64,000 nt of DNA, from assembly GCA_024867545.1 (NCBI GenBank), contig JANFNE010000001.1, forward strand, positions 868,001 to 932,000, read 5' to 3'. The stretch is from Phytopythium helicoides. Lineage: Eukaryota; Oomycota; Peronosporomycetes; Pythiales; Pythiaceae. Both the position numbers and the translations under genes were made by a program. How positions within the stretch are numbered: the first letter of the stretch is position 1; each line of letters starts with the position of its first letter. Shown here piece by piece: positions 13,385-15,719 of this stretch. Under the pieces are notes generated by a model that saw only the letters and a program-made list of their open reading frames with translations, was not told where the DNA came from and did not search any database.

Positions 13385-15719
13385 TTACTTGTCATCTGAT
13401 CCCAGTAGCAGAGCCCCAACACTTTTTCGAGTCCGTGATGATATAGGTGGCGTATCTTCGGAGATAGCCGATATTGTTTGGCTACCTCGGTGTCGACGGT
13501 TGCCTAGCTCTCGGATCACATCCTTGATCATGTGAGGCTTGAACTCCTCAGATAGGGACGACCAGAACTCGCGGTTTGCTAGAAGGATCTTGTAAGGCCC
13601 TGCGTTGACTTCCGCCAAAATCTGGGCCCACATGCTGAATAAGGGAGCGACGATAAAATCGGCAAAACCCACTTGCATTTTCTTGATGACGATCGTATCC
13701 CGGTCCATGAAAGGCGAGACGGGCAAGGACAACTGTTTTTCGAGCTCGCCTTGGATAAAGAACTCCTCAATCACACGCTCCGTCCAGCGCAGCATGAACT
13801 CGCGCTCCTTTGCTGGGTTGGACACGTCGCAGGTATGCAATATCATCTTGAGAAGCAGTTTCTTGTCACCAACATTCTTTATTGCAAGCTCCTCGCCGGG
13901 ACCGGGCAAAATATTCGTCTTGAACAATGCTACATCCTCGAAATGCTTCGCCATGTCAGTCGCGAGAACCATTTGAATAGTCATTTCACGCGCGTACTTG
14001 AAATCTTCTGGAGAGAGCTTGCCTAGCACATTTAGGTCTGGATTCTTCATTACAAGGAAAGACTGTGCAACGTGGAAGTTCTCGAGCACTGCATGGTCGT
14101 TGTATCGCAACGCAATATCGGATGCTGTCGAGATATGAAAACTGTTGTTGAACCCGTCATGCTTGAAGTCATGGATGCCCGCAGAGAGCAAGGCAAGTGC
14201 GCGATCGAGCGGGCGTAGAAATGGCTGCAGCTCTGGCTGGCACAGAAAGTAGTAAACAGTTTGCAGAACGTCGGCCTGCATGTATTGCGTTGTGGTAGGG
14301 GTTGGTGGCCACATACCCGCGCTGGATCTCAAGGAGAAAACTAGCGAGCACGGTCGATTCGATTTGTAGAGCTGAACATCCCATGTCTCGAAGCAAATGG
14401 AAGCCAACCTGGCACAGGGCATTGCCGCCCGATACTGTGTGAACGCGAAACACATCGAAAGCCCAGTTCGACGACGTCTGGAGCAAGTTCTGAAGCTCGA
14501 ACTCGGATGCAGAATCTAAAGGTGGCAAAATCTCCTTCAGCGTCATTCCACGCTTGGCAGCCGGTGTTAACGAGCCACGTCCAGCTGCTGTGTTGGCGCC
14601 AGGACTGCCAGGTGGGGCCTCGCTAGAGCTTTGCCCGGCTCCGCCAGGACTTTGACCACCACCTTCCTCATCACTGGTGGCATTCTGTCCGTTGTCATCA
14701 TCTCCAGCGTCGGGAAGGACTTTGCTGGTGTCGTTGATTTTGAGCAGCTCTCCACGCAGCCAGTTTTGCGTATCATCATCGACGCCTGGAGCGAGGAGAG
14801 CCTCATTCGCGTCGTACAGCCTGTTGTTCTTGATGGCGTCAATGGCGAACTCGATTTCGTCGCGAAGAGATGCTCGCAATGCTGGATGAAAGCGCAGCTC
14901 GTCAAGCACACGTAGCACATGTTCCACAGGTGACGAGATGGGCCCTCTGTGCACGAACTTCATGGCGCGCGAGCGTTGCTTCACACGCTCAAATACCACC
15001 AAGACACGCAGCACTCGCAGGATAACTCGCAGACGCAGGATTTTCACAAGGATAACAGAGGTCGTTCCGGTGGCTGCTACGATCCCGAGCACGAAGCTCG
15101 CAATGATGACGAGAGCGTCAAATAACGACCAGATGTTGCGTAGATGCTGCATACCGTACGCGAAAACCTTGAGCATAATCTCGAGGAGCAGGATGGAGCC
15201 AACGGTAATGTCGGTCATGTTGACGGCTGTCTTGAACTGGTGCGGCATGTCGTCGCCCATGGTGATCTGCGCGAGCACGAAGCCTCCGTAGGCGAGTACG
15301 ATGAGCACGAAGAAGACTTCGACGTAGAGCTGACGCATAAACTCTCCGACTGCTAGTCTCAGGCGCTGGATCGGTCTCAGGTGCATGACCGACCCGTCTC
15401 GGACCTTGGCGAACTCGGTCGTGCCTGCGCGTCTTCTGCGGTTGGCCAGCGCGTGCCCGGGCATGCCTGATCCCTGGTGTTGGAACTGACTCGTCAGCGA
15501 GGACCTGCCGACGCTCATGCCCTGGTTGGTGTCGGCCGGCGCCACTGCTCGCGAGCGGCGCTCTCCGTACGGCCGGCGCTTGAGCAGCCTGGAGAGCACG
15601 TGGCGCTTGGGTCTGGTGCCTCCCGCTGCGCTCTTGGTGGCCGTGGTCTTGGCCGCCGCCGCCGCCGCTGCCGCGAGCGCCGCGGGACTCGTGGGCGCCG
15701 CATCTGCGTCTGCGTTCAT
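13385..15719 (-). CDS. Voltage-sensor domain fused to 3',5'-cyclic nucleotide phosphodiesterase
   Basis: Predicted membrane enzyme hydrolysing cAMP/cGMP. Residues 1-120 are Ala- and Arg-rich. Residues about 131-250 form four TM segments of the ion_trans/voltage-sensor type: S1 VEVFFVLIVLAYGG, S2 with an internal LLEIMLK, S3 with WSLFDALVII, and S4 KILRLRVILRVLRV with arginines every third residue. There is no S5-pore-S6. After a linker comes a class I PDE domain with NPYHNAIH, HDFKHDGFNN, LHTCDVSNPAK and the MQVGFADFIVAPLF nucleotide clamp. One excess G at about 14277-14284 breaks the frame between NPYHNAIHA and ADVLQ, inside the conserved HNxxHAADV motif; no intron can explain it, so an assembly indel is most likely. 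Start ATG 15719 precedes a poly-alanine run. Confidence 0.85.

What the first reader, a model, noticed from the sequence alone, without database searches (positions are those of the whole stretch)
13385..15719. Voltage-sensor domain fused to a cyclic-nucleotide phosphodiesterase
The sequence shows a four-helix voltage sensor (acidic S2/S3 residues, S4 with Arg every third position) and no pore, followed in the same gene by a complete class I PDE domain. Known enzyme-linked voltage sensors are phosphoinositide phosphatases (VSP/TPTE). A PDE in that place would let membrane potential set cAMP/cGMP breakdown directly, which would suit zoospore or hyphal-tip electrical signalling. I am not aware of a well-characterised example.
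Basis: partly seen in the sequence, partly recalled or inferred. Interest (0 to 1): 0.88.

Follow-up and report, generated by a model that had tools for sequence, protein, structure and literature searches.

The report
Voltage sensor fused to cyclic-nucleotide phosphodiesterase
Water moulds (oomycetes) carry a conserved gene that joins the voltage-sensing part of an ion channel to an enzyme that destroys cAMP or cGMP, which could let a swimming spore turn electrical changes at its membrane directly into a chemical signal.

The parts
13385..15719 (-). VSD-PDE gene, start codon to stop codon; two reading frames in this assembly
   Evidence: start agrees with ortholog P0001
15258..15329 (-). S1 helix of the voltage sensor (invariant Tyr)
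   Evidence: model helix 24-47 of window:14730-15398
15156..15242 (-). S2 helix (invariant Asp and Glu ten residues apart)
   Evidence: model helix 53-81; 32 of 32 rows for each
15069..15134 (-). S3 helix (invariant Asp)
   Evidence: model helix 89-110; 32 of 32 rows
14961..15056 (-). S4 helix with K/R gating-charge pattern, running on past the membrane
   Evidence: model helix 115-146; R237 32 of 32, R234 31 of 32, R228 30 of 32 rows, P0001 numbering
14742..14960 (-). conserved helical linker between S4 and PDE
   Evidence: helices 157-169 and 176-190; profile found in the six distant fusions
13544..14543 (-). class I PDE catalytic domain (in two frames)
14276..14282 (-). place of the one-base frame break inside the PDE metal-binding motif

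Best explanation
This is a voltage-controlled cyclic-nucleotide phosphodiesterase. Shown by sequence and models: a pore-less S1-S4 voltage sensor, a conserved helical linker and a class I PDE domain in one polypeptide, conserved across oomycetes. Inferred: a change of membrane potential moves S4, the linker passes the movement to the cytosolic PDE, and cAMP or cGMP hydrolysis changes; I expect more hydrolysis on depolarisation, as in voltage-sensing phosphatases, but the sign is a guess. Inferred: it serves mainly in zoospores, opposite the pore-less sensor-cyclase that was stained on one flagellum in Phytophthora parasitica, so that membrane potential sets the messenger level from both sides.
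For: Fusion in one protein in 40 of 44 relatives and 50 of 87 in the wider profile search. Invariant S1 Tyr, S2 Asp/Glu, S3 Asp and one S4 Arg in 32 of 32 rows. Sensor folds like Ci-VSP and voltage-gated channels; sensor profile finds Hv1 and VSP sensors. All eight catalytic positions checked are present in 44 of 48 rows and the other four have gaps, not substitutions. Linker conserved in distant fusions. Sensor diverged faster than PDE in four of five rows of zoospore-less genera. Neighbour with a CFA20 domain. Sensor-cyclase on a flagellum in print (PMC12223298, passages).
Against: No voltage or enzyme measurement exists here. In this isolate the frame is broken. One of five zoospore-less rows (Peronosclerospora sorghi) shows no excess sensor change, one zoosporic row (Phytophthora boehmeriae) does at p 0.03, and the five zoospore-less rows form one clade in the gene tree. 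No sensor-cyclase was recognised in this genome. PMC5322657 (passage) cites a study in which cAMP and cGMP levels did not change during zoosporogenesis. The cyclase of PMC12223298 was not enriched in flagella by quantitative proteomics. P0050 keeps few S4 charges in register.
Confidence: 0.6

Rival explanations
1. The S1-S4 bundle mainly anchors the PDE in a membrane and binds partners; the enzyme is constitutive and voltage has little effect on it.
For: Membrane-anchored PDEs without sensors are common in protists (all 18 Toxoplasma PDEs were predicted to have transmembrane helices; PMC7720076, passages). The linker also occurs in a chytrid PDE (P0051) in which Pfam finds no Ion_trans. P0050 has a charge-poor S4.
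Against: An anchor needs no S2/S3 acids or S4 arginines, yet these are invariant or nearly so in 32 rows that differ widely elsewhere.
Confidence: 0.2
2. The sensor conducts protons or cations itself (as Hv1 does) or joins channel subunits, and the PDE tunes that current; the flow of information is from messenger to current.
For: Hv1 is among the closest single-domain sensors by profile (8e-14).
Against: Ci-VSP is equally close (1.5e-12) and, per the review PMC13095418 (passage), does not conduct protons; no pore region is present. Hv1-specific residues were not aligned.
Confidence: 0.1
3. Two separate genes, a sensor-only protein and a PDE, lie next to each other and are only apparently fused.
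For: Two reading frames in this window; Bremia's model P0042 has the sensor without the PDE.
Against: The frame change lies inside the PDE motif, not between domains; 40 of 44 relatives are single proteins.
Confidence: 0.02
4. In this isolate the gene is a young pseudogene.
For: One frame break in the catalytic motif; single copy in the genome.
Against: 298 codons after the break are open and 292 of 296 aligned residues match P0001; no second lesion was seen. This lowers but does not exclude a recent break. It would not touch the family.
Confidence: 0.15

Closest known systems
Voltage-sensing phosphatases (Ci-VSP, TPTE2)
   Same: Pore-less S1-S4 sensor ahead of a cytosolic hydrolase in one protein; Ci-VSP sensor is the top Foldseek hit of the sensor model and is found by the sensor profile.
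   Different: The enzyme is a class I cyclic-nucleotide PDE, not a PTEN-like lipid phosphatase.
Pore-less sensor-cyclases of Phytophthora parasitica (PPTG_13136, PPTG_13761; PMC12223298, passages)
   Same: Ion_trans/S4 domain without pore plus a cyclic-nucleotide enzyme; zoospore membrane protein.
   Different: It makes the messenger; this one should destroy it.
Channel-type adenylyl cyclases of Paramecium, Tetrahymena, Plasmodium (named in PMC10651576, section 4 read)
   Same: Voltage sensor coupled to cAMP turnover in protists.
   Different: They have a K+ channel pore and a cyclase.
GPCR-PDE bigrams of oomycetes (PMC5784254, PMC6033456, passages)
   Same: Membrane receptor part fused to a C-terminal PDE in oomycetes.
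   Different: Seven-helix GPCR part in place of a voltage sensor.
TgPDE4 and TgPDE16 of Toxoplasma (PMC7720076, PMC8809380, passages)
   Same: PDEase_I with all or part of an ion transport (pfam00520) domain; possibly the same family in alveolates.
   Different: No voltage reading in the passages seen (the word voltage does not occur in either main text); TgPDE4 has many substitutions in its catalytic region. Sequences not compared here.
PDE4 and PDE1 catalytic domains
   Different: No voltage sensor in those enzymes (recalled); own linker.

Membership tests
Voltage-sensor domain (S1-S4) | Four helices with the sensor fold | tested here: met
Voltage-sensor domain (S1-S4) | S4 basic residues every third position and acidic countercharges in S2/S3 | tested here: met
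   S2 D and E, S3 D, S4 R237 in 32 of 32 rows; R234 31, R228 30 of 32; K at 225 in 23 of 32; position 231 is not basic
Voltage-sensor domain (S1-S4) | Gating charge movement with voltage | not testable with these tools
   Needs electrophysiology
Class I cyclic-nucleotide phosphodiesterase | PDEase_I domain with HD metal site and invariant Gln | tested here: met
   246 bits, cut-off 24.8; eight positions complete in 44 of 48 rows, gaps in 4
Class I cyclic-nucleotide phosphodiesterase | Hydrolysis of cAMP or cGMP | not testable with these tools
   Needs enzyme assay; substrate not predicted
Voltage-sensing phosphatase (VSP) | Pore-less sensor in front of an enzyme | tested here: met
Voltage-sensing phosphatase (VSP) | PTEN-like phosphatase domain | tested here: not met
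   Pfam scans of the two window parts found only Ion_trans, PDEase_I and one sub-threshold GST_C_7
Voltage-gated ion channel | S5-pore-S6 after S4 | tested here: not met
   Ion_trans match ends at profile 117 of 241; no hydrophobic segment between S4 and PDE
GPCR-PDE bigram | Seven-helix receptor domain before the PDE | tested here: not met
   Four helices in the model
Pore-less sensor-cyclase (PPTG_13136 type) | Guanylate_cyc domain | tested here: not met
Hv1 proton channel | Hv1 signature residues and proton current | not tested
   No residue-level alignment to Hv1 was printed

The most novel reading that the evidence does not exclude
A voltage-driven cyclic-nucleotide cycle in the flagellar membrane of stramenopiles and perhaps alveolates: a pore-less sensor-cyclase makes the messenger and a pore-less sensor-PDE of single, ancient origin destroys it, so that membrane potential alone sets the cAMP or cGMP level that steers swimming, for example in K+ gradients or electric fields. 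When zoospores are lost the PDE is kept but its voltage sensor decays.
Probability: 0.3. Interest if true: 0.9.

Novelty: new variant of a known kind. Interest (0 to 1): 0.73.

Why it matters
The voltage-sensor proteins listed in the review PMC10651576 (section 4 read) are channels, the sperm Na+/H+ exchanger, a channel-type adenylyl cyclase, lipid phosphatases and the proton channel. A PDE would add direct voltage control of cyclic-nucleotide breakdown. It would also give zoospore electroception, whose mechanism PMC7409359 calls unexplored (passage), a concrete enzyme to test. Loss of zoospores in downy mildews offers a natural comparison, and the modular protein could become a tool for setting cAMP or cGMP electrically.

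Tried and rejected
Two-gene reading: set aside, because the break is inside the PDE motif and relatives are single proteins. Short intron across the break (GTATGT to CAG, 41 bases counted by eye): set aside because it would remove the metal-binding NPYHNAIHA segment and is very short; yet three relatives' gene models (P0025, P0033, P0034) lack that segment, which I could not explain.

Sensor-cyclase in this genome: none of 24 Guanylate_cyc matches lies within 50 kb of any of 108 Ion_trans matches, and Pfam scans of chosen frames at 11 cyclase loci (L012, L018, L019, L022, L023, L025-L030) gave no Ion_trans. Other cyclase loci and introns were not resolved, so absence is not shown.

Whole-model VIA search listed PDEs only, so the sensor was folded and searched alone. 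Register of S4 against Ci-VSP was read only from range ends (model 9..141, chain 101..236); this would place the window's R122, R128 and R131 (model numbering) near Ci-VSP 217, 223 and 226, but no residue-level alignment was printed.

Rows dropped: P0042; one search used 45 of 88 extracted domains; one search used 23 of the 48 rows (left out: unnamed sources, duplicates, P0032 and P0043 with partial or no sensor, P0042 without PDE, Pythium insidiosum, Saprolegniales). Zoospore state was assigned by genus from three papers, not by species. The Mann-Whitney test on rate ratios (5 against 12, p 0.0097) ignores kinship and is only a guide.

Literature on novelty: searches gave 0 papers; others (20 of 93 listed; 25 of 100; 2 of 2; 9 of 9; 18 of 18; 12 of 142; 40 of 952) showed no listed title or abstract start describing a voltage-sensor PDE. 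Only open-licence PMC papers were searched.

Full report
What is there. The gene lies on the minus strand, ATG at 15719, stop at 13387-13385. Its first part (14286-15719) matches Pfam Ion_trans over the S1-S4 half of the profile only (39.4 bits, cut-off 25); its second part (13388-14515) matches PDEase_I at 246 bits. Between S4 and the PDE there is no hydrophobic segment, so no pore. The frame breaks by one base between the HNxxHA and ADVxQ halves of the PDE metal-binding motif.

The break is probably not old. After it 298 codons stay open, and 292 of 296 aligned residues match ortholog P0001; before it 428 of 478 aligned columns match. PDE domains are the slower part in general, so the contrast itself proves little, but nothing after the break has begun to decay. 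An assembly error or a recent change fits. The sensor part has one match in the genome, itself.

The fusion is real and conserved. The sensor part alone found 44 proteins, 40 with both Pfam domains; the exceptions are P0042 (sensor only) and P0038, P0043, P0044 (only the PDE called) (only the 7995 candidates sharing most words were scored). The sensor region of the Albugo protein found 36, of which 34 carry both. A profile of 12 sequences found 87, of which 50 carry both: 41 from the set above, Thraustotheca clavata, Aphanomyces stellatus and Saprolegnia parasitica, one transcriptome protein (P0050, MMETSP0469, 30% identical to the Albugo protein) and five from unnamed sources at 28-44% (P0049, P0052, P0053, P0061, P0062). 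In a tree of 45 PDE domains the 13 oomycete fusions form one clade (support 100), the three Saprolegniales a starred group within it, and P0049 is their neighbour (support 91); the others are unplaced. All 19 fusion rows as one clade are not rejected (AU p 0.61), which does not show a clade. The fusion therefore predates the split of Saprolegniales from Albugo and the Peronosporales and may be older.

The linker. A profile of the segment after S4 (P0001 256-325) finds the six distant fusions (3e-10 to 2e-7), P0058 (1e-7; its N-terminus looks like a cut-off S4) and a chytrid PDE, P0051 (6e-6), in which Pfam finds no Ion_trans; no other non-oomycete protein of the set reaches E 0.01 (E-values for a set of 88). 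Sensor, linker and PDE travel together, as a coupling element should, though the chytrid case shows the linker is not exclusive to sensors.

A natural experiment. PMC3471859, PMC5846723 and PMC6570648 (passages) report that Hyaloperonospora, Bremia, most Peronospora and Peronosclerospora lack zoospores, through several losses. I compared 5 rows of such genera with 12 zoosporic rows. Differences from the zoosporic majority, sensor against PDE: Hyaloperonospora brassicae 51/135 against 40/333 (Fisher p 1e-9); Peronospora matthiolae 40/135 against 43/333 (p 5e-5), with K225 and R228 replaced; P. destructor 32/89 against 40/333 (p 8e-7); P. effusa 23/113 against 37/333 (p 0.017). The zoosporic downy mildew Plasmopara halstedii gives 17/135 against 25/333 (p 0.11). 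Against the idea: Peronosclerospora sorghi 26/135 against 47/333 (p 0.21), and zoosporic Phytophthora boehmeriae 24/135 against 34/333 (p 0.03). All five zoospore-less rows form one clade in this gene tree, so they are not independent, and P. destructor's S3-S4 looks frame-shifted. The linker also changes faster in them (16-23% differing, against 0-19% in zoosporic rows). Bremia has a 346-residue model without the PDE. My reading is that the regulatory half is under less constraint where zoospores are gone while catalysis is still needed. It is a hint, not a proof.

Context. The convergent neighbour (10324-12465) carries a CFA20 domain (101.5 bits), a family named for cilia- and flagella-associated protein 20; one neighbour is weak evidence. 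Nearly all cyclic-nucleotide genes of P. infestans are expressed mostly in sporangia and zoospores, but the same paper cites work in which cAMP and cGMP levels did not change during zoosporogenesis, and it does not single out this gene in the passages I saw (PMC5322657). Other PDE genes of this genome carry GAF domains (C10, C15, C38, C46) or several transmembrane segments (C20, C6), the latter perhaps the GPCR-PDE bigrams in print.

How it most likely works. Voltage moves S4, the linker shifts, and the PDE changes activity; I expect more hydrolysis on depolarisation by analogy with voltage-sensing phosphatases, but the sign is a guess. In P. parasitica a pore-less sensor-cyclase was stained predominantly on one flagellum, though quantitative proteomics did not find it differentially distributed; the family is said to be restricted to stramenopiles and alveolates, and the main text does not contain the word phosphodiesterase (PMC12223298, passages). 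Together the two would let voltage set the messenger level from both sides. I did not recognise a sensor-cyclase in this genome.

Known or new. The searches showed no listed paper on a voltage-sensor PDE (lists were capped; open-licence PMC only). Two reviews of voltage sensors do not contain the word phosphodiesterase in their main text (PMC10651576, section 4 read whole; PMC13095418, passages). Earlier hints exist: TgPDE4 and TgPDE16 are reported with an ion transport domain or portions of one, and PDEase_I and Ion_trans genes are reported always adjacent in four Euplotes subgroups (PMC8670190, passage), which could be split annotation of such a fusion. Both Pfam domains are already recorded on the oomycete proteins. 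I rate it a new variant of a known kind, the voltage-sensor-linked enzyme.

Organism. Unnamed. The nearest ortholog P0001 is unnamed too and branches next to Peronosporaceae, so an oomycete close to Phytophthora is likely; this is inference.

Noticed in passing
window 10324-12465 (+); a further ORF to 13284: The convergent neighbour encodes a CFA20 domain (PF05018, 101.5 bits), a cilia- and flagella-associated family; the next ORF on that strand ends 100 bases from the VSD-PDE stop.
   Followed up: partly
window 52020-54314 (-): Two Ion_trans matches in one open frame of 1448 residues, probably a multi-repeat cation channel.
   Followed up: no
P0025, P0033, P0034 (Phytophthora infestans and P. 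kernoviae gene models): These models lack the segment with the HNxxH metal ligands, the same place where the window's frame breaks. Annotation error, or a skipped short segment; unexplained.
   Followed up: partly
N-terminus, about window 15540-15580 (-): A short motif (YGERRSRAVAPAD-like) is conserved in most Peronosporales and Albugo rows in an otherwise disordered N-terminus; Saprolegniales have a related RSVVPSDS. Could be a targeting or phosphorylation site.
   Followed up: no
P0052, P0053, P0061, P0062: These unnamed fusions have a further N-terminal part with several hydrophobic segments and a Cys-rich region before the voltage sensor.
   Followed up: partly
L002/L003, L019/L020, L023/L024, L034/L035: Several PDE and cyclase loci occur as closely similar pairs on different contigs, which suggests retained haplotypes or recent duplication in this assembly; the sensor part of VSD-PDE has one match.
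   Followed up: no
P0042 (Bremia lactucae): A 346-residue model with the sensor, including a three-residue insertion in S4, and no PDE: a possible independent decay in a zoospore-less species.
   Followed up: no
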